A stretch of DNA of 52,559 nt from Candidatus Poribacteria bacterium (GTDB lineage: Bacteria > Poribacteria > DTPJ01 > WJIO01). The position numbers and the translations under genes were made by a program. Positions 2,260 through 42,822 of the stretch are shown here, piece after piece. A model generated the notes under the pieces. That model was not told where the DNA came from, did not search any database, and worked only from the letters and a program-made list of their open reading frames with translations. The stretch spans positions 1-52,559 of the forward strand of contig WJIO01000219.1 in NCBI GenBank assembly GCA_014730235.1. The letters run 5' to 3'. Within the stretch, counting starts at the first letter, position 1; every line of letters starts with the position of its first letter.

Positions 2260-2284
2260 TTACAGAGGGAAAGGAGTAAAGGTA

Positions 2285-2806: not shown

Positions 2807-3045
2807 GAAATATAATTCTGATTTCTGGGTATTAAGGTCTTTGTGATTAAAAATTATAGGTTGGATTTATAATGAAGATTGATTAATAAATCGGGTAATA
2901 AATACTAAAATTTAAACCTCACTAAAAAATACCCCTTGATCCACCTTTGGGAAAGGGGGATATGAAATTCTTCTCTCCGCTCAGAATGACAAGCTAAGAG
3001 AATTTTCAAATTATTAATAAACTAAAACCGGAGAGGAATTACCCT

Positions 3046-4029: not shown

Positions 4030-4085
4030 GTTTTCTCCAAAAAAATTTTGCTATTTTTGAAATAGTATGACGAATTTCATTATAA

Positions 4086-4208
4086 GTAATTGTTAAAAAA
4101 TGGATATAATTTAGTTGTCATTCCTGCTTTTGCAGGAATGACAAATTTTGTAATTTACCATCATTATAAAGGTATTTTCTAAACACATTTTTCATTTTTA
4201 ACGATTAC
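4086..4208. repeat. MITE-like repeat family 1; TIR gtaat(c/t)gttaaaaaatg, core tgtcattcctgcttttgcaggaatgaca
   Basis: Near-identical inverted copy of 37263-37386. Confidence 0.85.
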
Positions 4209-4249
4209 TATAAAAAAGCTTAAAATCAATTAACGGAGTAATAGTAATC

Positions 4250-5602
4250 ATGAAAACATTTCGTGGAGGAGTTCATCCTGATTGTAAAAAGGAATCCGCT
4301 GACATTAAGATTGAAAAGGCTGATCTACCTCCTAAATTAATCATTCCACTTCAACAGCATATAGGTGCGCCTGCCCAACCGCTGGTTGAAGTTGGAGATG
4401 AAGTAAAAAAGGGACAGAAAATAGCTGAAGCAGGTGGTTTTGTTTCTGCAAATATACATGCCAGTACCAGCGGCAAAGTAATTGATATTTCAGAATATCT
4501 ATACCCTAATACCATGGGAAGGAAAGCCCTTTCAGCGATAATCGAATCCGACGGTAAGGACGAGCAGGACGAACAGATAAAGCCTTATGAAGCTAAACTG
4601 TTTGATTCAGATGACCTTGTGGATCATATTGAAGGTCAGGAAATACTTGATCTGATCAGGGAAGCGGGTGTTGTAGGTATGGGTGGAGCTACCTTTCCAA
4701 CCGATGTAAAGCTCAATATTCCTCCGGGAAAAGAAATTGACAGCATAATTCTCAACGGCGTGGAATGTGAACCATATGTGACCCCAGACCACAGGCTTAT
4801 GGTAGAAAAACCTGAGAAAGTCGTTGATGGCCTGAGATTTATGATGAAAGCCATCAATGTAAACAGGGGTTTTATCGGCATTGAGATGAATAAGCCCGAT
4901 GCTATTGAATCAATACGGAAAGCAACGGGCAAATATTCAAATATTAAGGTTTTTCCGTTGAAAGTTAAGTATCCACAGGGCTGGGAAAATATACTTATCA
5001 AAGTAATACTTGATCGTGAAGTCCCTCCGGGCAGCCTTCCTCTGGATGTGGGTGTTGTTGTAGCAAATGTAGGAACATCCGCAGCCGTATCAGATGCCGT
5101 AAGACATGGATATCCACTTATAGAAAGGGTTGTTAGCGTAACCGGTTCCGGTATTGCTGAACCCAGAAACCTTTTGGTGAAAATAGGTACACCATTTTTG
5201 CACATTATAGAGCAATGCGGCGGTTTTAAGGGTACAGTAAAGAAGGTTATTGCCGGTGGACCCATGATGGGATTTACCATGTTTGATGTGAATATTCCAG
5301 TAATAAAGGGCACAACTAATATATTAGCTCTTACAGACCAGGAAGTGAAAGAACATGAACCCAAGCCATGTATCAGATGTGGTCGCTGTGTGAATGTATG
5401 TCCGGTTAGGCTTGTGCCGCGTATGATCGCATTGCTGGCAAAGCAGGATGAATTTGAGAAAGCGGAGGAATATAACCCCCTGGATTGCAAGGAATGTGGT
5501 TGTTGTGCATATATCTGTCCTGCAAAGATACCATTGGTGCAGTTAATACAACATGCAAAGGCGGATATTATGGCAAGACAAAGGGCTGCAAAGGCAAAGT
5601 AG
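4250..5602 (+). CDS. rnfC: Electron transport complex subunit RnfC
   Basis: 'TFRGGVHPDCKKE...', 'VVGMGGATFPTDVKL', two 4Fe-4S motifs CIRCGRCVNVCP and CKECGCCAYICP. Confidence 0.95.
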   Translation: MKTFRGGVHPDCKKESADIKIEKADLPPKLIIPLQQHIGAPAQPLVEVGDEVKKGQKIAEAGGFVSANIHASTSGKVIDISEYLYPNTMGRKALSAIIESDGKDEQDEQIKPYEAKLFDSDDLVDHIEGQEILDLIREAGVVGMGGATFPTDVKLNIPPGKEIDSIILNGVECEPYVTPDHRLMVEKPEKVVDGLRFMMKAINVNRGFIGIEMNKPDAIESIRKATGKYSNIKVFPLKVKYPQGWENILIKVILDREVPPGSLPLDVGVVVANVGTSAAVSDAVRHGYPLIERVVSVTGSGIAEPRNLLVKIGTPFLHIIEQCGGFKGTVKKVIAGGPMMGFTMFDVNIPVIKGTTNILALTDQEVKEHEPKPCIRCGRCVNVCPVRLVPRMIALLAKQDEFEKAEEYNPLDCKECGCCAYICPAKIPLVQLIQHAKADIMARQRAAKAK

Positions 5603-5618
5603 AATCGGAGGATGATTC

Positions 5619-7211
5619 ATGGAAGAAAGTCGGTTGATTGTATCAGTTTCTCCCCACATAAGACATAAAGATTCAATTCCCAGGATAATGTGGACAGTGG
5701 CTTTAACCCTGGTACCGGCAGTTCTTGCGGGTATATACTTCTTTGGCCCTCGTGTCCTTCTGCTTTTATTGATTGGCATTGCTTCAGCAGTAGCAACAGA
5801 AGCTGTTTTACAAAAATTTATGAAAAAAGATATCACCGTTTCTGATGGAAGTGCGGTGGTAACTGGTATGCTTTTGGTTATGGTTCTTCCGCCAGGAGTG
5901 CCTTTATGGTTACCTGTAGTGGGTTCGTTTTGCTCTATAGCTTTAGCCAAAGCTGTCTTTGGCGGCTTAGGTTATAACATTTTTAATCCAGCTTTGATAG
6001 GAAGGGCCATACTTGTGGCTTCATTCCCTAGATTTATGACGACATGGTTAATGCCACGAGGTATTGATTCAACTACTGCAGCCACACCTTTAACAATAAT
6101 TAAAACCGGGAATCTGCAAGGCTTGCCATCAATCGGGAACATGTTTATTGGTAAAATAGGCGGCTGTATAGGTGAAACATCGGCCCTGGCTTTGCTTATA
6201 GGTGCTGTATTTTTGTTGATAAGAGGTTATATTATATGGCATATACCTATAAGCTTTGTTGGTACAGTAGCAGTCATAACAGGATTATCTCAGATCGGAG
6301 AATGGAATTTTGCCATGATTCCATACCATATTTTTGGCGGAGGACTGATACTTGGGGCTTTTTACATGGCGACGGACATGGTAACAACCCCTGTAACGAA
6401 AAAGGGGGGTGTAATTTTTGGTATTGGGGCAGGAATAATAACCTGTGTAATCCGATACTGGGGAGGTTATCCAGAAGGTGTGTGTTATAGCATACTTATA
6501 ATGAACGCCTTTACTCCTTTGATAGATAAATACGTCAGACCAAGAAGATTTGGGGTTGTCAGGGATAACGTATTCAATCTTAAAACTGTGCTTATTATAG
6601 TAGCTTTAACTATTACATGTATAATCTCCGCCTTTGCTCTGACCATGGTAAATAACGCCACAAAAGAACGCATCGCCGAACAGAAGCTTTTTGCTCAACT
6701 TCGGTCAGTATCAGAAGCAGTTTTCAGAGATGTAGATTTTGATAACGATCCTATCAAGGATTCTATCACTATTCCTGATTTAGTGGATGAGGACAATAAT
6801 CCCAAGCTTATCAGCATAGGTAAGCGCGGTGATGAAGTCATTGCTGTTGCATTTAAGCATACGGGTGAAGGTTATGGTGGTCTTATATCTATAATGATTG
6901 GTCTGGATATGGATGGAAAAATAACCGGTATAAAGATCCTTGAACACAGTGAATCCCCGGGAATAGGTTCTAAGATAGAAAATCCTGAATTTTCAAATCA
7001 ATTTAAAGGTAAACATCTGGGAGAAGCCCCTGATGATGAACTGGAAGTCATGGAAGAAGGAGAAGCGGAAGAAAGCTGGCAGATTGAAGGTATAACAGGA
7101 GCAACTATATCCAGTTATGCTGTAACGGAAATATTAAATGAAGCCTTTATGATATTTGATGAATACAAAGACCAAATACTGGAAAAGGCAGCATCGGAAG
7201 GAGGAGAATAA
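5619..7211 (+). CDS. RnfD-RnfG fusion protein
   Basis: Residues 1 to ~310 are RnfD-like membrane domain ('VSVSPHIRHKDSIPRIMWTVALTLVPAVLAGIYFFG...YMATDMVTTPVTKKG'); the rest is RnfG-like (TM helix then FMN-binding domain with 'EGITGATISSYAVTEIL'). Confidence 0.9.
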   Translation: MEESRLIVSVSPHIRHKDSIPRIMWTVALTLVPAVLAGIYFFGPRVLLLLLIGIASAVATEAVLQKFMKKDITVSDGSAVVTGMLLVMVLPPGVPLWLPVVGSFCSIALAKAVFGGLGYNIFNPALIGRAILVASFPRFMTTWLMPRGIDSTTAATPLTIIKTGNLQGLPSIGNMFIGKIGGCIGETSALALLIGAVFLLIRGYIIWHIPISFVGTVAVITGLSQIGEWNFAMIPYHIFGGGLILGAFYMATDMVTTPVTKKGGVIFGIGAGIITCVIRYWGGYPEGVCYSILIMNAFTPLIDKYVRPRRFGVVRDNVFNLKTVLIIVALTITCIISAFALTMVNNATKERIAEQKLFAQLRSVSEAVFRDVDFDNDPIKDSITIPDLVDEDNNPKLISIGKRGDEVIAVAFKHTGEGYGGLISIMIGLDMDGKITGIKILEHSESPGIGSKIENPEFSNQFKGKHLGEAPDDELEVMEEGEAEESWQIEGITGATISSYAVTEILNEAFMIFDEYKDQILEKAASEGGE

Positions 7212-7807
7212 TGAGACTGTGGCATGAATTTAACAAAGGCATTATAAAGCAAAACCCGGTATTAAGGCTGGTGCTGGGAATGTGTCCAACGCTGGCAGTC
7301 ACAACAAGTGCTATCAACGGTTTTGCTATGGGCTGTTCGGTTATATTTGTCTTGTTATGTTCAAATATAATTATTTCCCTCTTTCGCAGAGTCATTCCGA
7401 TAAAGGTGAGAATTCCTGTATTTATTGTCATTATAGCAACCTTCGTTACTACTGTTGATCTGGTTATGGCCGGATACTTTCCAGAAATCCACAAGGTATT
7501 AGGTATATTTGTCCCGCTTATAGTTGTAAACTGTATAGTATTGGGAAGGGCTGAGGCCTTTGCATCCAGGCGCTCTATTATAAGCTCAATTGCCGACGCC
7601 CTTGGTATGGGGATCGGTTTTACCCTTACCTTGGTAATTCTTGGAAGCGTAAGGGAAATTTTTGGAAGCGGTACTATATTTGGTGCTGATATTTTAATGA
7701 GGTTTAGTTATCATAAATTTGGTATAATGCTTTTACCACCAGGGGCTTTTATCGCTCTTGGGTTACTTATGGGGTTAATGAATAAACTGACAAAGGAGAC
7801 CAGCTAA
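7211..7807 (+). CDS. rnfE: Electron transport complex subunit RnfE
   Basis: 198-aa membrane protein: 'LWHEFNKGIIKQNPVLRLVLGMCPTLAVTTSAINGFAMG'. Confidence 0.93.
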   Translation: MRLWHEFNKGIIKQNPVLRLVLGMCPTLAVTTSAINGFAMGCSVIFVLLCSNIIISLFRRVIPIKVRIPVFIVIIATFVTTVDLVMAGYFPEIHKVLGIFVPLIVVNCIVLGRAEAFASRRSIISSIADALGMGIGFTLTLVILGSVREIFGSGTIFGADILMRFSYHKFGIMLLPPGAFIALGLLMGLMNKLTKETS

Positions 7808-8385
7808 TGGAATTATTTCTCATATTCATCGGAGCTGTTTTAGTTAATAACTTCGTACTTACAAGGTTTTTGGGAATATGTCCGTTTTTGGGTCAATCTC
7901 AGAATATGAAATTAGCTTTTGGTATGGGAATGTCGGTTATATTCGTAATGACCCTTACATCAATAACCACAAATCTCATACATACTTATATACTTGTACC
8001 TCTTGAACTGAAATATCTGGTAACCGTTTCTTTTATTTTGGTAATTGCTTCGCTGGTGCAGTTGGTGGATATAGTGTTACAAAAGTTAATGCCTATGTTA
8101 CATCAATCTATGGGTATATATCTTGTTCTAATAACAACAAACTGTGCTATACTCGGACTTGCTTTGCTGAATGTTGTAAAGGAATATAATTTCGCAAAAA
8201 GCTTGGTATTTGGATTTAGCGCAGGAGTGGGTTTTACCCTGGCCCTGATTATAATTGCTGGAATAAGGGAACGCCTGGAACTTGCCGATATTCCTAAACC
8301 TTTACGGGGATTTCCTATAACCCTTATTATAGCAGGATTGCTATCAATAGCTTTTATGGGATTTACCGGTCTGGTGAAAATGTAA
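7807..8385 (+). CDS. rnfA: Electron transport complex subunit RnfA
   Basis: 192-aa membrane protein: 'MELFLIFIGAVLVNNFVLTRFLGICPFLGQSQNMKLAFGMG'. Confidence 0.95.
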   Translation: MELFLIFIGAVLVNNFVLTRFLGICPFLGQSQNMKLAFGMGMSVIFVMTLTSITTNLIHTYILVPLELKYLVTVSFILVIASLVQLVDIVLQKLMPMLHQSMGIYLVLITTNCAILGLALLNVVKEYNFAKSLVFGFSAGVGFTLALIIIAGIRERLELADIPKPLRGFPITLIIAGLLSIAFMGFTGLVKM

Positions 8386-25757: not shown

Positions 25758-27293
25758 TTAATTCAGCCAAAGGTTTCTATCCAAACTACGATATTGTATG
25801 GCTTCAGAGATATGCTCTGCTTGAATAATATCACTTTCGGCAAGGTCAGCTATTGTGCGGGATACTTTTAGTATACGATCATAGGCTCTGGCACTTAATC
25901 CCAGATGCTTGATAGCGGTTTCCAGAAGCTGATCTGCACCATCTGCTATCCTGCAGTATTTCCTGATTTGTCTTGAACGCATGCTGGCATTGCAGTGGAT
26001 TCCAGACCCGATTAATCGCTCCTGCTGAATCTGTCTTGCTGCATTAATCCGCTGTCTAATTTCGTGAGAGTTTTCGCCAGTTGGTTCTCCAGCAAGTTTC
26101 TCATAGGGTACAGCGGCCACTTCAATATGGATATCGATCCTGTCTAAGAGTGGCCCCGATATTTTGGACATATATTTTTGTATCTGACCCGGTGTGCAAC
26201 GGCATTCGTGGTAATTATCGCCTTTAAAACCACACAAACATGGATTCATCGCCGCCGCAAGCATAAAATTTGCAGGATAAGTTAATGTGGCTGATGCCCT
26301 GGAAATAGTTACTTTACCTGATTCCAGGGGTTGCCGCATAACCTCTAAGGCAGATTTTTTGAATTCAGGGAATTCATCAAGAAATAATACTCCATTGTGG
26401 GACAGGCTGACTTCGCCCGGTTTAGGGATTCTTCCTCCACCTATTAAGCCTGCATCTGATATGGTATGGTGGGGTGATCTGAATGGTCGGGTGGCGATCA
26501 AAGCGGAATCCTCTGGCAATTTTCCTGCAACACTGTAAATCTTGGTGGTTTCCAGAGCTTCTTCCAGACTCATCCTGGGTAAAATAGTGGGAAGACGCAT
26601 GGCCAGCATAGTTTTGCCTGATCCAGGAGGACCTATCATGATGATATTGTGTCCACCTGCTGCCGCTACCTCCAGCGAACGTTTTACATGCTCCTGTCCT
26701 TTCACATCGGAGAAATCTATCTTATATTCTGAATAGACGCTAAAAGCTTCGTTTATATCGAAATCATATGGTTTTGCATCAGCTCCATCATTCAGAAGAT
26801 TTACAGTTTCGCGAAGATTACTCACCGGATAGACTTCCAATCCGCTGGATACAGCAGATTCCTTGGCATTATCCAGAGGAACGATAAGCTTTTTGATATT
26901 GTTATCCCTTACTCCCAGAGCAATGGGCAGTGCGCCTTTGATAGGACGTACACTGCCGTCCATACCTAACTCACCTAGTATAGCAAATTCATTCAATGGA
27001 GCAATATCCACCTGTCCAGTAGCCGCCAGAACAGCAATAGCCAAAGGTAAGTCAAAGGCAGAACCTTCTTTACGAATATCCGCCGGGGCGAGATTTGCAG
27101 TTATACGTTTGACAGGGAAATTGAAAGCCGAATTCTTGATAGCCGCCGTAACTCTGTCCCGAGCTTCTTTGATAGCAACATCTGGCAAACCAACAGTGTT
27201 AAAAACAGGCAGACCTTCAGATATATCCAGTTCGACTTTGACTATATAAGCATCTATTCCCAAAACAGCAGCGCTTTGAACCTTTGCCAGCAT
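25758..27293 (-). CDS. YifB/ComM-family Mg-chelatase-like AAA ATPase
   Basis: '[48 protein letters not shown]...[24 protein letters not shown]...FLDEFPEF'. Confidence 0.95.
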
Positions 27294-27364
27294 TTTCTCC
27301 CCTTTCAGCTGTATTATATGGACAGATAAATTCCCTGTCAGTTATATTTTATTAAAATCCATCT

Positions 27365-29329
27365 TTATAATTCTTCAAATTTATCCAGAGCTTCCTCATC
27401 TGATATAGATTCCAGTTGGTTCAGAATTCGTTCAATGTCTTCCTTATCACCTTGTTCTGCTTTTTGACCGGAAATGGCTACAGACATCTCAGCAATTGTA
27501 GGTGACTGAAAAATCTGATTCTGGGGTATTTCTACATTAAAAGCATCATGCAAACGAGATATTATCTGAGTAGCCAGCAGAGAATGACCGCCCAATTCCA
27601 GGAAATTGTCATTGATACCCACCTGATCCAGATTCAGAATCTCCTCCCATATCTCTGTCAATTTTTCCTCTACAGGAGTTTTGGGAGGTACGTAGGGATT
27701 GTCCAGTTCCGGTCTGGCCGTGTCGGGTTCCGGCAGGGCCTGTCGGTCTACCTTATTGTTGGTATTCAGGGGCATAATTTTCATCTTCACAAAGGTCGAT
27801 GGTATCATGTAGTCCGGCAGTTTTTCAGCCAGTTCTTTTCTCAGAAGACTGACCGTAGGACTATATCCAACCTCAGGGATATAATAGGCAACAAGTCTCT
27901 GTTCCCCGGATTTATACGGCGCGGTTTTAACTACGGCCTCTCTTATGCTTTCCATTTGCATCATGGTATTTTCTACCTCGGCGGATTCGATCCTGTATCC
28001 TCTGATCTTTATCTGAAAGTCTTTCCGACCCAGGTGAGTTAATAGGGTATCAGGTTCCATTACTCCCAGGTCGCCGGTATGATAAATTCTTTTATCACTT
28101 CCATCAGGATCGGGCAGAAATTTTTTCTTTGTAAGTTCCGGTTTTCCCCAGTAGCCTGGTGATATGTATTTACTTTTTATTACGATTTCGCCAGCTTCAC
28201 CAAATTTTACACTTTTACCTTTATCATCTAAAAGCATTACCTCACAGCCATCAACTTCGTATCCCACAGGAACTATGCTGGTATTGATCTCTGTGTATTT
28301 GTGAATAAAATATTGTCGTATGATTTTGGCTTCAGCGGCTCCCAGACCATTGACTAAAATACAATCATCAGGAAAATGCTTTTTGAATAAGTCCACATCA
28401 GTTTTATACATGCGATCGCCGCCTACTTTAAGCAAGCGCATTTTCGGAAATTTATGGTTAACGGTAAGAACGCCTGCAAAATGACGTAACAAAGCAGGAA
28501 CAGATCCGTAAGCTGTAATCTCTTCATCTATAAGCCATTGGGCCATGTTATGCAGAGTTTCTTTTTTTATATCAAACACATGTAGAGATGCGCCGCTGAG
28601 TAAAGCGGTAAAAATATCGGCTACGGATGCGCTGAAGCTGGAGGATGATAATAACGTCAGACGGTCATCCTTATGTATGTGGAAATTATTAATAAATATC
28701 ATGGCGAAGTGCATGACGTCCATGTGATTTTCTATTACGCCTTTGGGCTGACCGGTGGAGCCGGAAGTATACATTATATAGGCATAGTCCTCCGGAAATA
28801 TGGATATATTCGGATTGTGGGAGGGAAGCTCAGGGCTTAATTTGTTGATGTTTATAATCTGTGAGTCCTCGATCCCTAATTTCCTGATCAACGGCAGATT
28901 GTGATCGTTGGTTACTATCAGTTCAGGAGATGTATCTTTCAGAATATATTCAACACGTTTATGGGGTAAATCCGGGTCCAGAGGAACGTAAAATTTCCGG
29001 GCTTTTAGTATACCGAATATAGCCGGTATCAGGGGAACATCATGCTGGATCATCAAGCCAACAGGCTCAGAATTTTCCCCGCACCGTTCAAGTATAACAT
29101 GGGCGAGGTTGTTTGCGGCTGTGTTTAGTTCAGCATAAGTAAGAAAACCATATTTTGAGTTGACCGACAGTTTATCCTTGTATTCTTCAACTTGTCTCTC
29201 AAAGCGATCTATTATGGATTTACCCAGTTCTTCCCGCTCAAACCTTATAAAATCATTGGTTGGATGTATATTCTTGCCTTTGACTGCAGGTGATTTAGCC
29301 AAAATCATACCTCCGTATTTATTCTTCAT
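27365..29329 (-). CDS. NRPS A-PCP didomain protein
   Basis: Adenylation motifs 'YAYIMYTSGSTGQPKGVIENH', 'YHTGDLGVMEPDTLLTHLGRKDFQIKIRGYRIE', 'NNKVDRQALP'; carrier 'DNFLELGGHSLLATQII'; no C or TE domain. Confidence 0.9.
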   Translation of the reverse strand: MKNKYGGMILAKSPAVKGKNIHPTNDFIRFEREELGKSIIDRFERQVEEYKDKLSVNSKYGFLTYAELNTAANNLAHVILERCGENSEPVGLMIQHDVPLIPAIFGILKARKFYVPLDPDLPHKRVEYILKDTSPELIVTNDHNLPLIRKLGIEDSQIININKLSPELPSHNPNISIFPEDYAYIMYTSGSTGQPKGVIENHMDVMHFAMIFINNFHIHKDDRLTLLSSSSFSASVADIFTALLSGASLHVFDIKKETLHNMAQWLIDEEITAYGSVPALLRHFAGVLTVNHKFPKMRLLKVGGDRMYKTDVDLFKKHFPDDCILVNGLGAAEAKIIRQYFIHKYTEINTSIVPVGYEVDGCEVMLLDDKGKSVKFGEAGEIVIKSKYISPGYWGKPELTKKKFLPDPDGSDKRIYHTGDLGVMEPDTLLTHLGRKDFQIKIRGYRIESAEVENTMMQMESIREAVVKTAPYKSGEQRLVAYYIPEVGYSPTVSLLRKELAEKLPDYMIPSTFVKMKIMPLNTNNKVDRQALPEPDTARPELDNPYVPPKTPVEEKLTEIWEEILNLDQVGINDNFLELGGHSLLATQIISRLHDAFNVEIPQNQIFQSPTIAEMSVAISGQKAEQGDKEDIERILNQLESISDEEALDKFEEL

Positions 29330-32300
29330 CTGAAGGTTCTTCTAATTCATCTAAAAGAGCTTTTAGCTCTGATTCCTCTATATTCCCCAGCATCTTCCGG
29401 GAAATTTCTGAAGCTATCTCGGCTATATTGGGATACTGGAAAAAGTTTTTCAGGGATATATTGATCTGAAACACGCTTCGGATTCGGGATACTACCTTCG
29501 TGACAAGAAGGGAATGACCACCAAGGTAAAAAAAGTTGTCGTGTATTCCTATTTTTTCAATTCCAAGAACATCAGACCATATTTCGGCCAGGGATTCTTC
29601 CACAGGAGTTTGAGGTGGAATGTATTCATCCTGAATATCCCTTGTCCGTTCGGGTACAGGCAGGGCCTTGATATTTACCTTACCATGAGCTGAAAGGGGG
29701 ATTTTATCAAGAGCTACAAAAGCCGAAGGTATCATATGTTCCGGGAGTTTTTGCCTCAGGAAATCTACCAGATCGCTTTCGTCAATTGTATTTCCTTCTT
29801 CAGGTATTATATATGCCACAAGTCTTTTATCACCGAGGGTATCCTCTCTGGCCATTACCAGGGCTTCGGCTATTTCACGATGTAGGGTTAGTATGACTTC
29901 GATCTCACCGGCTTCTATGCGGAATCCCCTGATTTTGATCTGATGATCCACACGACCCAGGAATTCTATATTCCCATCGGGTAGATAGCGGGCCATATCA
30001 CCAGTTTTATATAATCTTCCCGTATCCCTGAATGGATCAGGTATAAAACTATTCTCTGTCTGCTCTGGATTGTTAAGGTAACAGCGTGCAAGATTAAAGC
30101 CACCTATAAATATCTCACCTGTTACACCTATGGGCACCGGCTGCATCTGCTCTGTAAGTATATAAATTTGCGTATTTGGTAAAGGTTTTCCGATAGGAGT
30201 TATGGTATATTCCCTATCCTCTGTTTGATTATTTACATGATAGGTAGTTACTCCAACGGTGGTTTCTGTGGGACCGTAGTGATTGTATATGTTGCACCCC
30301 GGTTTTATGGATTGAAGCTTTTTCACCCACTTCCAACGAGAAGCTTCACCCCCTATCACAAGAGTATCTTTCGGCAGAATTTCCCCTGGTGATGCTGAAG
30401 AGAGCAGCATTTCCAGATGGGATGGTGCTATTTTAAGGTAATCAATAGAATGGTTTTTGAAATACTCACCTAAAGCCCGGGGATCGAGGCTTTGCTCACG
30501 CAGGATGATATGTAATGTACCTCCAAGGATCAAGGGTGGAAAAAGAACAGTTATACAAGCGTCAACCGTCAAAGGCTGAACCATGGCATAACTGCGTTGG
30601 GGTTTAAAATCCAGCTTTTCCATTATCCCAAAGCAGTAATTCATAAGCTGTCTGTGCTCCACTGCCACACCTTTGGGCTTGCCGGTAGTGCCGGAAGTAT
30701 ACAGAACATAGGCCAGATTATGGCTCTTAACTTCAGAATGCGAAGGTGTTGCCTGCTCCAGGGATATCTTTTTCCAGTCTTTATCAATATTAATCCTGCT
30801 TGTCGTATGTCCGGCAAGATCTGGGCTTTGATCTGATTTTGTCAGAATGACTGACATCCGGGAATCCTTTGCCATGTATGAAAGGCGATCCTCAGGATAA
30901 TTGTGTTCCATTGGGACGTATGCTCCGCCGGCTTTCAGTATTCCCATAATACTGGTTATCATATCCAGAGATCGCTCCATGCATATTCCAACGGTTTTTT
31001 CAGGGCCTATGCCAAGTCGTTTGAGATAGTGGGCTAACTGGTTTGATCGGGCGTTCAATTCCCGGTAAGTCAGGCTTTTGTCTTTGCATACAATGGCTGT
31101 GGATTCGGGTGTCTTTTTCGCCTGCTTCTCCAGGAGCTGGTGAATACATTGATCTAGATCATAATCCCTTGATGTTTCGTTCCATTCCCGCATTATAAGA
31201 TGTTTTTCTGCACTGGATAATATGGGTAGGACTGATATGCGCTCATCAGGATTTGTTACTAAACTTTCCAGAAGATTCTGGAAATGTTCCAACATGCGCT
31301 GTATGGTGGATGATTCAAATAAATCTGTGTTGTATGTAAATACGCATGAAAGCCCCTGTTCTTTTTCGGAGATCTCCAGGGTTATGTCAAAGGGTGCAAT
31401 GCCGCTATCAAATTTATATTCCTCTATTATCAGTTCCCGGATTTTTTCAACCTTTTTAGGGGTATTCTCCAGATTAAATAACACCTGGAACAGAGGTTTA
31501 TAACTGAGGCTTCTTTCTGGATTTATCTGTTCAACTATTTTTTCAAAGGGTATGTCCTGGTTAGCATAGGCTTCCAGGGCTTCTTTTTTCACCCGGGCCA
31601 ATAGTTCCCGAAACGTAGGTTCACCGGAAAGGTCAATTCGCAAAATAATCGTGTTGATAAAAGATCCAATAAGTTCTTCGCTTTCAACAGCGCCGCGCCC
31701 GGCTACAGGAACGCCCAGGGTTATGTCTTCCTGTCGGGAATAGCGATACAAAAGCACTTGAAAGGCTGAAAGCATTGTCATAAATAGGGTTACTTCTTCT
31801 CGCTGACCAAGCTTTCTTAGAGATTGCAAAAGCTTTCTGGATATCATAAGCGTCTGGCGAGAGCCTCTGTATGTCAATATACTGGGTCTTGGTCGATCTG
31901 TCGGCAAAGACAGGGGTTCAGGAGGAACAGAAAGTTTTTCCAGCCAGTATGATAACTGCTCATCCAGTGTGCCATCCTCCAGCAGTTTATTCTGCCATAG
32001 GCTGTAATCCGAATATTGTATGGGAAGCTCTTCCAGTGGCGAAGATTTTCCGGAATAAAAGGCCGAATATAAATCAGATAGTTCTTTCAATAGTATATCA
32101 AATGACCACCTGTCAAAGACTATGTGATGGAAAGTAATTAGCAGGATGTGGTCTTCATGGCCTATCTTAATAATTTTCACCCGGATTACCGGTCCTTGGG
32201 CCAGGTTAAAAGGCTTTTTAACTTCATCTGAGGCTATTCTTTGGGCTTCTTTTTCCCTTTCCTTGCCGGATAAATTGCTAATATCCACTACCGGGATTTC

Positions 32301-34349
32301 CAAATTTAACCGGGAATCAATAATCTGCACAGGTTGCCCATCTCTTTCAGGGAATCTGGCCCTTAGAACGCTGTGACGTTTGACAATTTCATTTAAGCTA
32401 CGCCTGAGAATATCTGTATCAAGCTTCCCTTTCAGCCTTAGATATGCAGGACGATGATATGCAGGATTACCCGGTTCAAATCGATCCAGAAACCACAGGC
32501 GCATCTGAATGTTGGAGAGGGGCAGGTTACCAGTTTCGTCCCGGGCATCCAGAATAACCTTATCGATTGGTTTTGTTGATTCTATTCTTACTGCTATATT
32601 GGCTATAGTGGGTCTGTCGAGAAAATCCAGAAAAGATAGCCTGTAACCCATTCTGGCTCTTACCCTGGACATGATCTGGGTGGCCAGCATCGAATCGCCG
32701 CCCAGTTGCAGAAAATTATCGTTTATGCCTATTTCATCTATTCCCAATACTTCAGACCATATATCTGAAAGGGATTTTTCCAGGGATGTGCGGGGTGGCA
32801 CGAATTCCTGCCTTGTTTCCTCCTCTGTCATGGATGTTATACCCAGCTTTTCCGCAAGTCCAATACGCTGGAGTTTGCCTGTAGGGCCCTTGGGAATTTC
32901 GTCAACAATTAATATTTTCTTTGGTACTTTGAAATCTGATATTTGCTTTGCGGTAAATTCTTGCAACTCCCTTTCTTTAACTTCCGCGCCTTCCCGGAGT
33001 ATTACAGCAGCGGCTACCTCCTCGCCTAATTGATGATGCGGGGCTGCAAAGGCTGTGGCCTGAATTACATCGGGATGGCTTAAAAGCACCTCATCCACTG
33101 CCCGCGGGGCTATTTTTTCGCCTCCCCGGTTAATAAGCTCTTTTATACGCCCGGTGATAAATACATAGCCATCAGAGTCCATGTATCCCTGGTCGCCGGT
33201 TCTGAACCATCCCTTTGTAAAGGCTGTTTTATTTGCTTCCGGGTTATTTTCGTATCCGTTTGTTACATTTTCTCCCCGGATTACTATCTCACCTATCTCA
33301 TTTTTATCCAGCAAATTTCCCTCTTCATCCATGATATTCATCTCCGGACCTGCTGGCAAACCAACCGAACCGGGCTTACGAATACCCGGGGGTAAGGGAT
33401 TGGTAGACATCTGGTGTGACGCTTCCGTCATACCGTATGACTCAATCATAGGCGCGTTGAAAATACTCTCAAGTTCTTTCATCACCTGAGGAGGTAAGGA
33501 GGCTGAGGATGAACGAAGGAATCTCAGGGGATTTTTACTGATTATGTCTTTGTTGGATTCAGCCCTGGACAATATAGCCTGATGCATGGTGGGAACGGCT
33601 GAATACCATGTGGGATGGAAATAGCCCATCCATTCAAAGAAGTCGGGCGCGTAAAATCCAGGGGTGCAGACAATGCTCGCACCTGCTGTTATTGTGGATA
33701 ATGTAGCACCCATAAGACCGTGTATATGAAATAGGGGCATGATGTTAAGGCATCGGTCATCTGGTGTAAGTCTTAAAGCTGATTTTATGTTTCCAGCGGA
33801 TGTGCATATATTTATGTGGGTCAAGGGAACGATTTTAGGTCTTGATGTAGTTCCTGAGGTATGAAGAACCAGGGCCACGTCTTCAGGTTGTGCAGAATTG
33901 CTCTTGAGCGGTGAATCAGGGATTTTGCCGTTTTCAAGGGTGAATTTTCCCGCTGTTAAACCGGGTATAAGTTTTACTACAGGCACATTCAGGGATTTTG
34001 CCACTTCTACAACCGGGGAATCGAATCCATACTGAATTACCAGAGCTTTTGCCTGTAAGTCTGAAAGGTAAAATTCGTATTCTTTGGCCCGGTAATTGGG
34101 ATTGAGGGGTGCGCTGGTGGCGGCAGAAGCTATGGTAAGAAAAGTCGAAGCCATTTCGGGCCCATTTGGTAAAACAATGGCAACTCGATCATTTCGGGAT
34201 ATTCCCATAGCGTTAAGACTGTTTATGACATACCGGGCCTGCTGAAATAATTCACCGTATGTCAGCGGATTTTTGTCTATACCCAGAATTGCTTTTGAAT
34301 CAGGAATGTTTTTCCCGTGTTGTTTTAGAATTTGATATACAGATTTCAT
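29319..34349 (-). CDS. NRPS, A(acyl-CoA-ligase type)-PCP-C-A-PCP
   Basis: First A: 'VALVLHTSGTTSRPKIVPLTH...RTGDQGYMDSDGYVFITGRIKELINRGGEKI'; PCP 'LQLGGDSMLATQI'; C 'HHIVFDRWSFDILLKEL'; second A 'YVLYTSGTTGKPKGVAVEH'; PCP 'FFYLGGHSLLVTKV'. Confidence 0.93.
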   Translation of the reverse strand: MKSVYQILKQHGKNIPDSKAILGIDKNPLTYGELFQQARYVINSLNAMGISRNDRVAIVLPNGPEMASTFLTIASAATSAPLNPNYRAKEYEFYLSDLQAKALVIQYGFDSPVVEVAKSLNVPVVKLIPGLTAGKFTLENGKIPDSPLKSNSAQPEDVALVLHTSGTTSRPKIVPLTHINICTSAGNIKSALRLTPDDRCLNIMPLFHIHGLMGATLSTITAGASIVCTPGFYAPDFFEWMGYFHPTWYSAVPTMHQAILSRAESNKDIISKNPLRFLRSSSASLPPQVMKELESIFNAPMIESYGMTEASHQMSTNPLPPGIRKPGSVGLPAGPEMNIMDEEGNLLDKNEIGEIVIRGENVTNGYENNPEANKTAFTKGWFRTGDQGYMDSDGYVFITGRIKELINRGGEKIAPRAVDEVLLSHPDVIQATAFAAPHHQLGEEVAAAVILREGAEVKERELQEFTAKQISDFKVPKKILIVDEIPKGPTGKLQRIGLAEKLGITSMTEEETRQEFVPPRTSLEKSLSDIWSEVLGIDEIGINDNFLQLGGDSMLATQIMSRVRARMGYRLSFLDFLDRPTIANIAVRIESTKPIDKVILDARDETGNLPLSNIQMRLWFLDRFEPGNPAYHRPAYLRLKGKLDTDILRRSLNEIVKRHSVLRARFPERDGQPVQIIDSRLNLEIPVVDISNLSGKEREKEAQRIASDEVKKPFNLAQGPVIRVKIIKIGHEDHILLITFHHIVFDRWSFDILLKELSDLYSAFYSGKSSPLEELPIQYSDYSLWQNKLLEDGTLDEQLSYWLEKLSVPPEPLSLPTDRPRPSILTYRGSRQTLMISRKLLQSLRKLGQREEVTLFMTMLSAFQVLLYRYSRQEDITLGVPVAGRGAVESEELIGSFINTIILRIDLSGEPTFRELLARVKKEALEAYANQDIPFEKIVEQINPERSLSYKPLFQVLFNLENTPKKVEKIRELIIEEYKFDSGIAPFDITLEISEKEQGLSCVFTYNTDLFESSTIQRMLEHFQNLLESLVTNPDERISVLPILSSAEKHLIMREWNETSRDYDLDQCIHQLLEKQAKKTPESTAIVCKDKSLTYRELNARSNQLAHYLKRLGIGPEKTVGICMERSLDMITSIMGILKAGGAYVPMEHNYPEDRLSYMAKDSRMSVILTKSDQSPDLAGHTTSRINIDKDWKKISLEQATPSHSEVKSHNLAYVLYTSGTTGKPKGVAVEHRQLMNYCFGIMEKLDFKPQRSYAMVQPLTVDACITVLFPPLILGGTLHIILREQSLDPRALGEYFKNHSIDYLKIAPSHLEMLLSSASPGEILPKDTLVIGGEASRWKWVKKLQSIKPGCNIYNHYGPTETTVGVTTYHVNNQTEDREYTITPIGKPLPNTQIYILTEQMQPVPIGVTGEIFIGGFNLARCYLNNPEQTENSFIPDPFRDTGRLYKTGDMARYLPDGNIEFLGRVDHQIKIRGFRIEAGEIEVILTLHREIAEALVMAREDTLGDKRLVAYIIPEEGNTIDESDLVDFLRQKLPEHMIPSAFVALDKIPLSAHGKVNIKALPVPERTRDIQDEYIPPQTPVEESLAEIWSDVLGIEKIGIHDNFFYLGGHSLLVTKVVSRIRSVFQINISLKNFFQYPNIAEIASEISRKMLGNIEESELKALLDELEEPSDEE

Positions 34350-37424: not shown

Positions 37425-38069
37425 GTGATGAAATCTTTGTTGATTTTTGTTAACATTTTGTTTCTTGCATTTCTAATGATTACTTCATTTGCATACACTG
37501 ATGTTGTGTATGTGGGTGATGATCCGGATACCAAAGGTGATTGGGTAGGTAAATATGGTAACAACGGTGTTATCATTTTTGCTATGGAAGACTTGCAAGA
37601 TATGAAGGATATAACTGTTTTTGATGACGGTGGAAACAACAGGTGGGATTGGGAAAACCCAACTGAAGATGAAAGAGGATTGCTTTATCCTGATGGCTCA
37701 GGCCAACGCACAGGATCATGCGTTTATAATAATCCCGATGGCATTTTTACCATTGAAACAAGCCTGGATAGTTATCAGGTAGCCGCTTATGTGGTGGATT
37801 GGGATTCGGATGTTCGTATTCAGGATATGACTGGTTTTCAAGGTGCTGAAGCACCGGCCGATCCCCATGTCATAGTGGAAAATCCTGTTTTTAATGGTGG
37901 TGTATATCATATCTGGCAGGTTACAGGTGGAGAACCTTTTAAGCTCCAGGTAGTTCATCAGGGCGGGGCTAACTGGGTTATGACCGGAATATTTGTGGAT
38001 GAAATAGACACAGCGGCTGTTGAACCAGGTGATAAACTTGCTACCACATGGAGCAAAATTAAAAAATAA
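37425..38069 (+). CDS. Secreted hypothetical protein, tandem paralogue 1, with C-terminal DKLATTWSKIKK
   Basis: Signal peptide MMKSLLIFVNILFLAFLMITSFA; aligned end to end with the next gene. Confidence 0.8.
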   Translation: MMKSLLIFVNILFLAFLMITSFAYTDVVYVGDDPDTKGDWVGKYGNNGVIIFAMEDLQDMKDITVFDDGGNNRWDWENPTEDERGLLYPDGSGQRTGSCVYNNPDGIFTIETSLDSYQVAAYVVDWDSDVRIQDMTGFQGAEAPADPHVIVENPVFNGGVYHIWQVTGGEPFKLQVVHQGGANWVMTGIFVDEIDTAAVEPGDKLATTWSKIKK

Positions 38070-38084
38070 CAAAAATATATTAAA

Positions 38085-38123
38085 CAAAACAAGTCTGAAA
38101 GGTTACCTTTCAGACTTGTTTTG
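38085..38123 (+). terminator. 18-bp stem inverted repeat between the paralogues, probable terminator
   Basis: caaaacaagtctgaaagg / tta / cctttcagacttgttttg. Confidence 0.8.
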
Positions 38124-38139
38124 CAATTTAAGAGGTTTT

Positions 38140-38763
38140 ATGATGAAATATATATTAACATTTATAATGCTGTTTTCCGTTTTTTCTCTGGCTTTTGGAA
38201 ATGTAGAATTTATAGGTGAAGACAAAGATACCAAGGGTAACTGGCCTGAATTATACGGTAAAAATGGTGCTATTGTTTTCGCTCCTCTGGATATAGAGGA
38301 TCTGAAGGATATTAATGTATTTGATGATGGAGGAAACCAGCGGTGGGATTGGGCCAATCCAACTCAAGATGAAAGAGGATTAATATATCCTGACGATCCG
38401 GATCAAAGAGCTGGATCATGTATGTTTAACAATCCGGTTGGTGTGGTAACTATTGAGACAGACTTAAAGAATTATCAGGTAGCTGTTTATGTAGTGGACT
38501 GGGATTCTTCAGTAAGAGTTCAGGATATGGTTGGTTTCCAGGAAGATCCGCCGGATGATCCGGATGTTACTGTAGAAAACCCGGATTTCCACGAAGGCAT
38601 ATATTATATATGGGAAGTAACCGGCGGAGGGCCTTTCAGCTTACAGATAACTCATAAGGGCGGCGCTAACTGGGTTATATCCGGTTTATTTCTTGATGCC
38701 CTGAATATAGCCGTTGAGACAAAGGGAAAACTGGCGACAACGTGGGCTGGTATCAAACTTTGA
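38140..38763 (+). CDS. Secreted hypothetical protein, tandem paralogue 2, with C-terminal GKLATTWAGIKL
   Basis: Signal peptide MMKYILTFIMLFSVFSLAFG; start reassigned from 38020 because that start lies inside the upstream gene and terminator. Confidence 0.8.
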   Translation: MMKYILTFIMLFSVFSLAFGNVEFIGEDKDTKGNWPELYGKNGAIVFAPLDIEDLKDINVFDDGGNQRWDWANPTQDERGLIYPDDPDQRAGSCMFNNPVGVVTIETDLKNYQVAVYVVDWDSSVRVQDMVGFQEDPPDDPDVTVENPDFHEGIYYIWEVTGGGPFSLQITHKGGANWVISGLFLDALNIAVETKGKLATTWAGIKL

Positions 38764-39468: not shown

Positions 39469-40731
39469 GTGCTTGTGAAAGTGACATGTGTTGCTATAGT
39501 TATTCTTCTCGTCAGTACATCTCCTCTTTTTGGAGTATCGGTCAGTGGAAGTCTTACAACCATGAACTGGCTGCGTCAGGAACCGATAGAGAGAAACGGC
39601 GAGGATTTATATAATTATCTGTATGAATATATACGTGTCAGCATAGGAGACATTGCCGATGACAGCCTCTCCGCGTATATCTACACCCGCGTCAGGAAAG
39701 ATATTGCGAGCGATGGCAAACCTGATTGGCGCACTATATATGGGTATTTAAACTGGACTGGACCTCAAGGCTATTCCATCAAGGTGGGTAGACAATTCCT
39801 ACCAAACGGCTTGGGGTTCTGGCAGATGGATGGTATCAGAGTGAAGTTCAAAAGCTTCAGGGGGATTTCCCATTCTGCATACGCTGGCTCATCAGTTGCT
39901 CCCTGGTCAGTGGGAGAGAATAGGGACGGATTGGCTGGATTGTCAGTAGATCTGCCGGAGATATTGAAGCTGCAAACCGGATTAAGCCTATTTGCCAACT
40001 TCGACAGCAAAAGCTTCGAGCGTGTGGTTATAGGTGGTCACCTGGACAGCTATGATTATAGCCTCTTTGAGCTTCGAAAATTTATCATGTATAGTAAGAT
40101 AAACTATGACATCATCAACAGGGAATTGGTTCAGGGAAGTGCCACAGTCAACCTGAACCTTCTGGAAAAATTCGGTATATACTCGGAATATTATCATGGT
40201 AAGCAGTTATTTCCAGAGGAGTCAATATTCAGTGTATTTGCCACCGACGATATAAACGAGGCCGCTGTCGGTCTGCGGTATAATGTATTTAAATCAATGC
40301 TATTGGCCGGCCGATACAGCAGATATTTCTCTTCGTCCTTTCCCTCCAGCACGTTTGAAATTGGGCTCTATAGAAACCGCTCACGAGTTACAGATTTTAG
40401 CATTACCATGTTGAAAGCGGAAAAGCCAGATACTGATAGTATGGATACTGGGATTCGGGCTAGTCTTGGACGCTCTATAACTAAGAAATTTTCAGCAAAG
40501 ATAAGCGTTTACTACAATGATTACAGGCTCCGAGGGGCTGAGAAACGGGATAACATCCACTCTTTGCAGCTGGATCTTGGCTATCATATCATCGACCAGA
40601 TCTCAGCCCATATAAGGTTGGAAGATAATGTTGATCACAATGGTGACAACAGTTTTAGATTGTTGGCGAGGGTGCGGCTAGGTTTCAAATATGGTCAGCC
40701 ATCTACCGGAGGTGAATATGGCCATAGATAG
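39469..40731 (+). CDS. Outer-membrane beta-barrel (porin-like) protein
   Basis: Signal peptide; alternating amphipathic strands such as 'DSLSAYIYTRVRKD', 'YSIKVGRQFLPNGLGFWQMDGIRVKFKSF', 'LQLDLGYHIIDQISAHIRLEDN'. Confidence 0.7.
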   Translation: MLVKVTCVAIVILLVSTSPLFGVSVSGSLTTMNWLRQEPIERNGEDLYNYLYEYIRVSIGDIADDSLSAYIYTRVRKDIASDGKPDWRTIYGYLNWTGPQGYSIKVGRQFLPNGLGFWQMDGIRVKFKSFRGISHSAYAGSSVAPWSVGENRDGLAGLSVDLPEILKLQTGLSLFANFDSKSFERVVIGGHLDSYDYSLFELRKFIMYSKINYDIINRELVQGSATVNLNLLEKFGIYSEYYHGKQLFPEESIFSVFATDDINEAAVGLRYNVFKSMLLAGRYSRYFSSSFPSSTFEIGLYRNRSRVTDFSITMLKAEKPDTDSMDTGIRASLGRSITKKFSAKISVYYNDYRLRGAEKRDNIHSLQLDLGYHIIDQISAHIRLEDNVDHNGDNSFRLLARVRLGFKYGQPSTGGEYGHR

Positions 40732-41779
40732 CGTTCGCCTCAGACATTGGAGTTATATACTTGCATTGGTGATAGTGTCCCTGACTGCCTGTGCAATATT
40801 TGGCCAGCGTAAGGTATCAGAACGCCGGGTAATATTCTCCCACAAGGTTCACGCTACAGAAGAATTGGACTGCGAAGTATGTCATCAGGAGATTTTCTCC
40901 AGTACTCGCTTTATGGATAATAATCTCCCTGAAGAAGAGATATGCCAGGTCTGCCACGAGGAATCAGAAATCGTGTATAATAAGGCCGCCGCCACTATAC
41001 CGCCTGTGGAATATGGCATGAAATTCTCCCATAAGGTACATCTGGAAGAGGGTCATAAGTGCATAAGGTGTCACGAATCTATACCCAGCAGTTCTATAGC
41101 ATCTGACAGAAACCTGCCTTCCATGAAGATATGTAGTGAGTGTCATGAGATCGAGCCTCTGGAATGCAGCCTTTGCCATTTCAACTTAGGAAGCGGCGAG
41201 TATGTCCCGGCTTCTCACGACAAGGCGATGTGGACAATATGGCACAAAAATCAGGCGGAACGTAACGACGATCTATGCTCAGATTGCCACAGAGGTGATG
41301 TGAAACTCCAACTGGATCAGGATATGATACCTGAACCCGGACACAGTCTGGATCAAAAAATCGAGGAATGCTCCAAATGTCATATGGGTGACATCAGGCC
41401 AAACCGGCATGGCAATAATTATGTTCTTAATCACGGTGTTAATGCAAAGATAAACTCTCAGCGATGCAATGTATGCCATAAACGGGCCGAGTGTATTGAT
41501 TGTCACGAGGCAGTTGATTTCGAGACCAGAATACATCCCGCAGGATGGGTTAACATGGGACATATAGCGCCGGCGCGGAACAACTTGAGTACATGCGTTG
41601 ACTGTCATGATGAGCAGACATGCATGGTATGTCATTTTGAGATTTCGCCGCATCCAGCAGACTGGAAATCCAGATTGTCGTTTGGCTACTCCAGACAGCA
41701 TAGAGATTCGTCAGCATGTATGAAGTGCCACGAAAGAGAGGAACTATGCACGAAATGTCATGGATTAAGACATGATTAA
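40718..41779 (+). CDS. Multiheme c-type cytochrome, 13 CxxCH, probable lipoprotein or signal-anchored
   Basis: CEVCH, CQVCH, CIRCH, CSECH, CSLCH, CSDCH, CSKCH, CNVCH, CIDCH, CVDCH, CMVCH, CMKCH, CTKCH; N-terminus 'ILALVIVSLTAC'; ATG 40718 with ggaggtg RBS. Confidence 0.9.
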   Translation: MAIDSVRLRHWSYILALVIVSLTACAIFGQRKVSERRVIFSHKVHATEELDCEVCHQEIFSSTRFMDNNLPEEEICQVCHEESEIVYNKAAATIPPVEYGMKFSHKVHLEEGHKCIRCHESIPSSSIASDRNLPSMKICSECHEIEPLECSLCHFNLGSGEYVPASHDKAMWTIWHKNQAERNDDLCSDCHRGDVKLQLDQDMIPEPGHSLDQKIEECSKCHMGDIRPNRHGNNYVLNHGVNAKINSQRCNVCHKRAECIDCHEAVDFETRIHPAGWVNMGHIAPARNNLSTCVDCHDEQTCMVCHFEISPHPADWKSRLSFGYSRQHRDSSACMKCHEREELCTKCHGLRHD

Positions 41780-41829
41780 GTTTAGCGTTGTCATGAGGTA
41801 TTTGAATACTATTTTCAAAGGAAAAGATT

Positions 41830-42822
41830 ATGAGAAAATACATTGTATTCTTGAGTGTGCTTACAGTATTTATCTATGTGATGGTATTGACGGGGTGTGA
41901 TGAGGAATCCGTATCGGCGGTTGACACGTGCGGGGCCTGTCACGATGCTTCCACTGAAATTCTTGCATTGCAGATCCAATGGGAGGCCTCTACACATGCG
42001 ACAGGAGATGCTTTTGAGCGAAGCAGTGCTAATTGCGCAGGTTGTCATACAAGCGAGGGATTTAGAGAAATGCTGGCAATGGGCGGTGAGCCTCCGTCAG
42101 AGGCGATTGATGAGGGTATTGACAATCCAACTCCCCCGAATTGTCGCACCTGTCATCAGATTCATAGTAATTATGACGATACAGATTATGCGCTGACCAT
42201 TGAAACTCCCGTCACAATAAGGCTCAGTGGGGAAGTTGTCGACTTTGGCAAGGGAAATATCTGTGCAATGTGCCACCAACCGAGAGTGAGAGAACCTGTT
42301 CTCACAGTTGGCGGTGATGATGTTGAGATCACCTCAAGACGTTGGGGGCCGCATCACAGCACTCAAGCTGCTATTCTGGCCGGCACTGGTGGTTATGAAG
42401 TGCCCGGATCGGTTCCCTATGTAAAGCAATTCGTACACAAAACGCTCATAGATGATTCATGTGTTACCTGCCACATGGCAACTGCTTTTGGCGATAAGAT
42501 CGGCGGACATACCATGAAGATGGCGCATGATTCCGACACGGTCAATGTATCAGGATGCGTGTTCTGCCATGCAGATATTGAGACATTTGATCTGAATGGA
42601 ACCCAAACGGAGATCGCTGGCCTGCTTGATGAATTAAAGGCTCTTCTTATAGCAAATAATCTCATTGATAACTCTGGGCTTGCTGTTCCGGGAATAAGGT
42701 CCTCCGATGAGACGGGCAGTCTCTTTAATTATCTTCTGATATTAGAGGATGGAAGCCTTGGTGTCCACAACCCAAGATATTCACGAGCAATTTTGCAGAA
42801 TTCGATAGAAGCCTTGAGATGA
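41830..42822 (+). CDS. Multiheme cytochrome lipoprotein, 6 CxxCH
   Basis: Lipobox-like 'VMVLTGCDEE'; CGACH, CAGCH, CRTCH, CAMCH, CVTCH, CVFCH. Confidence 0.88.
   Translation: MRKYIVFLSVLTVFIYVMVLTGCDEESVSAVDTCGACHDASTEILALQIQWEASTHATGDAFERSSANCAGCHTSEGFREMLAMGGEPPSEAIDEGIDNPTPPNCRTCHQIHSNYDDTDYALTIETPVTIRLSGEVVDFGKGNICAMCHQPRVREPVLTVGGDDVEITSRRWGPHHSTQAAILAGTGGYEVPGSVPYVKQFVHKTLIDDSCVTCHMATAFGDKIGGHTMKMAHDSDTVNVSGCVFCHADIETFDLNGTQTEIAGLLDELKALLIANNLIDNSGLAVPGIRSSDETGSLFNYLLILEDGSLGVHNPRYSRAILQNSIEALR

What the first reader, a model, noticed from the sequence alone, without database searches (positions are those of the whole stretch)
39469..42822. Porin plus 13-heme plus 6-heme lipoprotein cytochrome: candidate outer-membrane electron conduit
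Three consecutive genes encode a beta-barrel outer-membrane protein, a 13-CxxCH cytochrome (its start overlaps the barrel stop by 14 nt) and a 6-CxxCH lipoprotein. This matches the porin-cytochrome complex logic known from Geobacter (porin + periplasmic + outer multiheme cytochromes) without obvious similarity to those proteins. The cluster is flanked by transposase genes, consistent with horizontal mobility.
Basis: partly seen in the sequence, partly recalled or inferred. Interest (0 to 1): 0.65.

Follow-up and report, generated by a model that had tools for sequence, protein, structure and literature searches.

The report
Geobacter-type outer-membrane electron conduit genes
Three neighbouring genes encode a protein wire through the outer membrane that belongs to the family Geobacter uses to pass electrons out of the cell; it is a new, distant member of a known kind, in an uncultured bacterium with few other cytochromes of this sort.

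Summary
The three genes are real and at the stated coordinates: a 420-aa beta-barrel-type protein, a 13-CxxCH cytochrome overlapping it by 14 nt, and a 6-CxxCH lipoprotein. In fact they are homologous to the Geobacter porin-cytochrome (Pcc) family. A profile made only from Geobacterales OmbB-type barrels finds the window barrel at E=3e-20 (OmpC, LamB, BtuB and FadL do not register). A profile made only from OmaB finds the 13-heme protein at E=2e-11 (42 bits; best of 161 multiheme controls 11 bits). A barrel plus 11-14-heme pair is adjacent in about nine other genomes, and the two trees share 12 of 16 splits (0.2 expected). Published Pcc clusters already include 12-14-heme partners (Anaeromyxobacter, Kuenenia, Ignavibacterium). 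Best reading: an ordinary but deeply diverged Pcc conduit, with the 6-heme protein as likely outer cytochrome. Not supported: "flanked by transposases, hence mobile". Insertion sequences lie only on the 3' side, and the barrel groups with same-phylum barrels (100/98). Unexpected: the genome yields few other multiheme loci, and an Rnf complex with its own tetraheme cytochrome lies about 31 kb away on the contig.

The parts
39469..40731 (+). OmbB-family outer-membrane beta-barrel protein (420 aa; likely start GTG 39475), with signal peptide
   Evidence: OmbB-only profile E=3.2e-20, unrelated barrels not registered; hhalign with Geobacterales OmbB Prob 99.7 for the same-phylum alignment, 97.9 for the single sequence
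39787..39834 (+). barrel signature GRQFLPNGLGFWQMDG (residues 107-122)
   Evidence: G107, R108, D121, G122 invariant in ten family members and present in OmbB
40222..40242 (+). barrel signature SIFSVFA (residues 252-258)
   Evidence: conserved in same-phylum relatives and as SIYSVFA in OmbB
40718..41779 (+). 13-heme cytochrome (353 aa), OmaB-related, with lipoprotein-type signal SLTAC
   Evidence: 13 CxxCH; OmaB-only profile 42 bits against 11 for the best of 161 multiheme controls
40871..41164 (+). N-terminal c7-like part with four hemes (residues 52-149) beyond the OmaB-like part
   Evidence: Pfam Cytochrome_C7; outside the OmaB alignment
41165..41740 (+). OmaB-like part (residues 150-341)
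   Evidence: hhalign Prob 99.5, E=8e-23, seven of OmaB's eight hemes in register
41830..42822 (+). 6-heme lipoprotein cytochrome (330 aa), probable outer-face cytochrome
   Evidence: 6 CxxCH, lipobox VLTGC; Pfam MtrC/MtrF II-IV domain above cut-off; homologous over most of its length to modules of ~925-1004-aa cytochromes beside the barrel in G041, G074, G138

Best explanation
The triad is a member of the Pcc (OmbB-OmaB-OmcB) family of outer-membrane electron conduits. The barrel sits in the outer membrane. The OmaB-like part of the 13-heme protein is inserted into it from the periplasm, while its N-terminal c7-like hemes, probably held near the membrane by a lipid anchor, reach into the periplasm to collect electrons. 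The 6-heme lipoprotein sits on the outer face and passes electrons to an extracellular acceptor. Shown here: gene order, heme counts, homology of barrel and 13-heme protein to OmbB and OmaB, conservation and co-evolution of the pair, and homology of the 6-heme protein to cytochromes with secretion tails. Inferred: assembly, insertion, localisation, electron flow, its direction (outward assumed, as in Geobacter) and the acceptor.
For: OmbB-only and OmaB-only profiles find the window proteins specifically. Full-length profile alignment of the barrel and of residues 150-341 of the 13-heme protein. The family profile matches no solved barrel in the PDB, so the match is not general barrel likeness. 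Pair adjacent in G041, G074, G093, G131, G138 with both members detected, and in G104, G118, G123, G125 next to a barrel-sized secreted protein. Barrel and cytochrome trees share 12 of 16 splits, shuffles 0.2 on average. Relatives of the 6-heme protein in G041 and G138 carry type IX secretion C-terminal domains, hence extracellular. The reconstituted Geobacter complex moves electrons across a lipid bilayer (Liu et al. 2014 as cited in PMC4245776), and its three genes are needed for Fe(III) reduction when the duplicate is absent (PMC4589669).
Against: No structure: the single-sequence model was useless, so strand number and fit are untested. Geobacterales reference clusters were named by architecture, because G. 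sulfurreducens itself was not fetched. The homology of the 6-heme protein to OmcB proper is not shown: it matches only the Geotalea lipoproteins (1e-7 to 6e-11), not the C. bremense one. D. alkaliphilus and I. album carry pcc genes but do not grow on Fe(III) or Mn(IV) oxides (PMC4245776). No expression or physiology data.
Confidence: 0.8

Rival explanations
1. Same conduit family, but working inward: it takes electrons from an extracellular donor or a partner cell into the periplasm.
For: Conduits of this architecture are proposed to take up electrons in methanotroph-partner sulfate reducers (OetABI, PMC10553843); direction cannot be read from sequence. The genome shows few other multiheme loci of the dense kind.
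Against: Shi et al. 2014 found no pcc cluster in any known Fe(II) oxidiser (PMC4245776); the closest characterised relatives reduce outward.
Confidence: 0.12
2. The barrel is an ordinary solute porin and the cytochromes belong to a separate periplasmic respiratory reductase; the neighbourhood is coincidence.
For: No Pfam, NCBIfam or PDB match for the barrel on its own.
Against: Conserved adjacency and congruent trees; specific OmbB homology; no catalytic reductase family among the matches to the cytochromes.
Confidence: 0.03
3. A recently acquired mobile cassette carried by the neighbouring insertion sequences.
For: Two insertion sequences lie directly 3'; the genes are patchy in the phylum, 5 of 85 genomes and 5 of 22 genera.
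Against: No insertion sequence found on the 5' side; the barrel groups at 100/98 with three barrels of the same phylum on long branches; G+C of 42-46% is near the window mean of 41.5%. Old transfer between lineages is not excluded.
Confidence: 0.05
4. An old conduit that is no longer used: the genes are intact, but most partner cytochromes have been lost.
For: Few other multiheme loci found in the genome, and a second gene like the 6-heme one is split into two ORFs.
Against: All three genes are open and complete with ribosome-binding sites, and all 13 heme motifs are kept. The pattern search misses widely spaced hemes and the genome is 91.6% complete.
Confidence: 0.05

Closest known systems
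OmbB-OmaB-OmcB porin-cytochrome complex of Geobacter (Pcc group I)
   Same: Homologous barrel over its full length; homologous cytochrome core; three adjacent genes; outer lipoprotein cytochrome.
   Different: 13 hemes instead of 8 in the inserted cytochrome (four more at the N-terminus, one more at the C-terminus, one internal heme not in register); a 6-heme 330-aa outer cytochrome instead of a 12-heme one of about 750 aa; no TetR-type orfR/orfS gene beside it.
Two-gene pcc clusters of Anaeromyxobacter and Kuenenia, and the Ignavibacterium album cluster (IALB_1838, 400 aa, 14 hemes) (PMC4245776)
   Same: Barrel next to a 338-400-aa cytochrome with 12-14 hemes. The A. oryzae pair (12 hemes, 361 aa) was found here with the family profiles.
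   Different: The Anaeromyxobacter and Kuenenia clusters lack the outer cytochrome gene; the Ignavibacterium sequences themselves were not compared.
Pcc group V type clusters (barrel, 5-heme periplasmic cytochrome, lipoproteins) in C. bremense and Geomonas
   Same: Barrel and cytochrome detected by the same profiles (barrel about 1e-23).
   Different: Only 5 hemes in 144 aa; a separate branch in the barrel tree.
MtrCAB of Shewanella
   Same: Same working principle: barrel, inserted multiheme cytochrome, outer cytochrome; the 6-heme protein has a weak MtrC/MtrF-like domain match.
   Different: The window-family barrel profile does not match MtrB in the PDB; MtrB is a 26-strand barrel (PMC12133095); Pcc and Mtr are held to be unrelated (PMC4245776).
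OetABI of sulfate reducers that partner methane-oxidising archaea (PMC10553843)
   Same: Same three-part architecture: periplasmic cytochrome, barrel, extracellular lipoprotein cytochrome.
   Different: Not compared by sequence: no OetI sequence was obtained.

Membership tests
Pcc (OmbB-OmaB-OmcB) porin-cytochrome family | OmbB-homologous outer-membrane barrel | tested here: met
   OmbB-only profile E=3.2e-20 with negative controls; hhalign Prob 97.9-99.7.
Pcc (OmbB-OmaB-OmcB) porin-cytochrome family | adjacent OmaB-homologous multiheme cytochrome with 5-14 hemes | tested here: met
   13 hemes; OmaB-only profile 42 bits against 11 for the best of 161 controls; hhalign Prob 99.5.
Pcc (OmbB-OmaB-OmcB) porin-cytochrome family | outer-membrane multiheme lipoprotein cytochrome in the cluster (present in most, not all, Pcc clusters) | tested here: inconclusive
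   6-heme lipoprotein next door; weak match to two OmcB-like proteins of Geotalea, none to the C. bremense OmcB-like protein. Outer location is inferred from relatives with type IX secretion tails.
Pcc (OmbB-OmaB-OmcB) porin-cytochrome family | barrel with 18-22 membrane strands | tested here: inconclusive
   AlphaFold without alignment failed; a crude strand score gives about 17-22 strands and is poorly calibrated on known porins.
Pcc (OmbB-OmaB-OmcB) porin-cytochrome family | complex moves electrons across a membrane | not testable with these tools
   Needs biochemistry.
Mtr (MtrCAB) | homology to the 26-strand MtrB barrel | tested here: not met
   The family barrel profile finds no solved barrel in the PDB up to E=10; the barrel has 420 aa.
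Mtr (MtrCAB) | 10-heme MtrA/DmsE-type periplasmic cytochrome | tested here: not met
   13 hemes; the DmsE family model scores 18.7 bits against a cut-off of 192.2.
OetABI conduit | OetI-type barrel | not tested
   No OetI sequence was obtained; the OmcS-bearing loci fetched here held no barrel found by the profiles.

The most novel reading that the evidence does not exclude
In this cytochrome-poor organism the conduit is fed by the Rnf complex encoded on the same contig (1.6-8.4 kb: Rex regulator, tetraheme c554-type cytochrome, RnfC, an RnfD/FMN-binding fusion and two Rnf-Nqr membrane subunits), so that ferredoxin oxidation by Rnf is coupled through a tetraheme cytochrome and a Pcc wire to an extracellular acceptor: a bacterial counterpart of Rnf-MmcA in Methanosarcina.
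Probability: 0.1. Interest if true: 0.65.

Novelty: new member of a known kind. Interest (0 to 1): 0.33.

Why it matters
It shows that the Geobacter-type conduit reaches, with recognisable sequence, into an uncultured lineage whose genome otherwise shows few multiheme cytochromes. It gives two barrel signatures (GRQ...DG and SIFSVFA) by which such conduits can be found, since no Pfam or NCBIfam model covers the barrel. If the Rnf link held, extracellular respiration driven directly from ferredoxin in a bacterium would become testable. Pcc homologs in candidate phyla have been reported before (FeGenie, PMC7005843), so the spread itself is not new.

Tried and rejected
Single-sequence AlphaFold of the barrel: pLDDT 34, unusable, not searched further. 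An alignment-based model was not submitted, because the tool admits only window sequences and loci from certain tools, and the relatives came from the genome search. Viral contigs hold no relative. The first c13 alignment was too diverse for a collection scan. PpcA as bait in unnamed relatives found nothing. The Pfam c7 search of the own genome missed even the window's own 13-heme gene, so its near-empty result is not evidence; CxxCH-pair patterns were used instead, and they see only hemes with gaps of 9-70 nt. Rfam found nothing in the window; promoter and terminator scans gave no clear operon ends. Rejected: generic porin, Mtr membership, recent mobile cassette.

Full report
Observation. Three genes run head to tail on the + strand: a 420-aa protein without family annotation (39469-40731), a cytochrome with 13 CxxCH motifs (start ATG 40718, preceded by GGAGGT, to 41779) and a lipoprotein cytochrome with 6 CxxCH motifs (41830-42822). 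The 14-nt overlap is right. The heme counts are far beyond chance. Both cytochromes have a lipobox. Insertion sequences lie only downstream: a DUF772/DDE transposase and an IS630-like element with 50-nt imperfect inverted repeats. The nearest upstream transposase found is about 38 kb away. 'Flanked' is therefore half right.

Relatives. The barrel and the 13-heme protein were searched separately in 146 genomes, same phylum and outgroups. Both were detected side by side in G041 and G074 (same phylum) and in G093, G131 and G138 (other phyla). In G104, G118, G123 and G125 a 12-13-heme homolog sits next to a barrel-sized secreted protein; a profile of same-phylum barrels finds those of G104, G125 and G118 (6e-12 to 3e-5) but not that of G123. 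G058 and G080 of the same phylum have members too. In the phylum, 5 of 85 genomes (5 of 22 genera) carry the barrel. An alignment of ten barrels shows two signatures, GRQ...DG and SIFSVFA. In the 11 cytochromes most heme motifs are invariant.

Link to a known family. Pfam, NCBIfam and the PDB give no match for the barrel. OmcS was used as bait to fetch named genomes. The window-family profiles then found, in Citrifermentans bremense, Geobacter sp. AOG1, Geomobilimonas luticola and Geotalea SG265, a cluster of a barrel of about 404 aa, an 8-9-heme cytochrome of 231-257 aa and a lipoprotein of about 600-810 aa with 8-12 CxxCH. This is the published architecture of ombB-omaB-omcB (PMC4245776, PMC4589669). 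The names are assigned by architecture, since G. sulfurreducens was not in hand. The reverse test used only these Geobacterales proteins. The OmbB profile finds the window barrel at E=3.2e-20 and none of OmpC, LamB, BtuB or FadL. The OmaB profile finds the window 13-heme protein at 42 bits, against 11 for the best of 161 other multiheme proteins. Profile-profile alignment covers the whole barrel (Prob 99.7) and residues 150-341 of the 13-heme protein (Prob 99.5), with seven OmaB hemes in register. The single barrel sequence gives Prob 97.9. Anaeromyxobacter oryzae has a 12-heme pair of the same family.

Co-evolution and history. Trees of barrels and cytochromes (19 shared rows) share 12 of 16 splits; label shuffles share 0.2 on average, at most 3. 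Some branches are long, and the cytochrome tree is weak around the window protein (82/82), but its barrel is firmly with G080, G041 and G074 (100/98). This argues against a recent mobile cassette, not against old transfer.

Mechanism. The barrel-cytochrome pair is the conserved unit, as Shi et al. found for Pcc. By analogy with Pcc, the OmaB-like core of the 13-heme protein would pass through the barrel. Its extra hemes, four at the N-terminus and one at the C-terminus, would lengthen the wire; this is inference. The 6-heme protein is homologous over nearly its whole length to modules of cytochromes of about 925-1004 aa that sit beside the barrel in G041, G074 and G138; the two tested (G041, G138) carry type IX secretion C-terminal domains. 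This supports an outer position. Direction and partner are open.

Supply of electrons. Pattern searches for close CxxCH pairs in the 5.5-Mb genome (91.6% complete) found four loci outside this contig: a fragment, a split gene like the 6-heme one, an 8-heme partial protein and a protein with one tight pair. The search is blind to widely spaced hemes and to missing parts of the genome. The same contig carries, at 1.6-8.4 kb, Rex, a tetraheme c554-type cytochrome and Rnf genes. In Methanosarcina acetivorans the cytochrome MmcA, associated with Rnf, serves extracellular electron transfer (PMC6703419, PMC11024163). A link to the triad, about 31 kb away, is only a suggestion.

Novelty. Pcc barrels with 12-14-heme partners are published for Anaeromyxobacter, Kuenenia and Ignavibacterium (PMC4245776), and Pcc homologs in several candidate phyla by FeGenie (PMC7005843). 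This is a new, divergent member of a known kind.

Noticed in passing
window 1633-8385 (+): Rex-type redox regulator, a tetraheme c554-type cytochrome (2249-2806, 185 aa), a dihydroorotate-dehydrogenase-like gene and Rnf genes: RnfC, an RnfD/FMN-binding fusion of 530 aa and two Rnf-Nqr membrane subunits. A cytochrome inside a bacterial rnf cluster recalls Rnf-MmcA of Methanosarcina.
   Followed up: partly
L022 (G080:C156) 4118-5719 (-): A barrel of this family whose C-terminal strands are replaced in frame by a cytochrome b-like membrane segment; either a real fusion or an assembly fault in a fragmented genome.
   Followed up: no
L020 910-3924 and L028 2142-4919: Large relatives of the 6-heme protein carry FlgD-Ig and type IX secretion sorting domains, and L020 also cohesin and dockerin domains; the outer cytochrome of these conduits seems to be exported in different ways in different lineages.
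   Followed up: partly
L172 (G000:C171) 848-1720: A second gene like the 6-heme one in the same genome, split into two ORFs with 4 and 2 CxxCH motifs and ending with a similar HNPRY motif; broken gene or sequencing error.
   Followed up: no
L020 7776-14001 and L021 8876-14990: Beside the pair in two same-phylum genomes: a 16-heme lipoprotein, a further multiheme protein, a cytochrome b-like membrane protein and a 15-19-heme protein, as if a whole route from quinol to the outside were clustered there.
   Followed up: no
window 37425-38763 (+): Two neighbouring, similar secreted proteins (214 and 247 aa) with no Pfam match, just upstream of the triad.
   Followed up: no
window 25758-34349 (-): AMP-binding / NRPS-like genes (654 and 1676 aa, the latter with condensation and two adenylation-carrier segments by its sequence) next to a YifB-type ATPase.
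   Followed up: no
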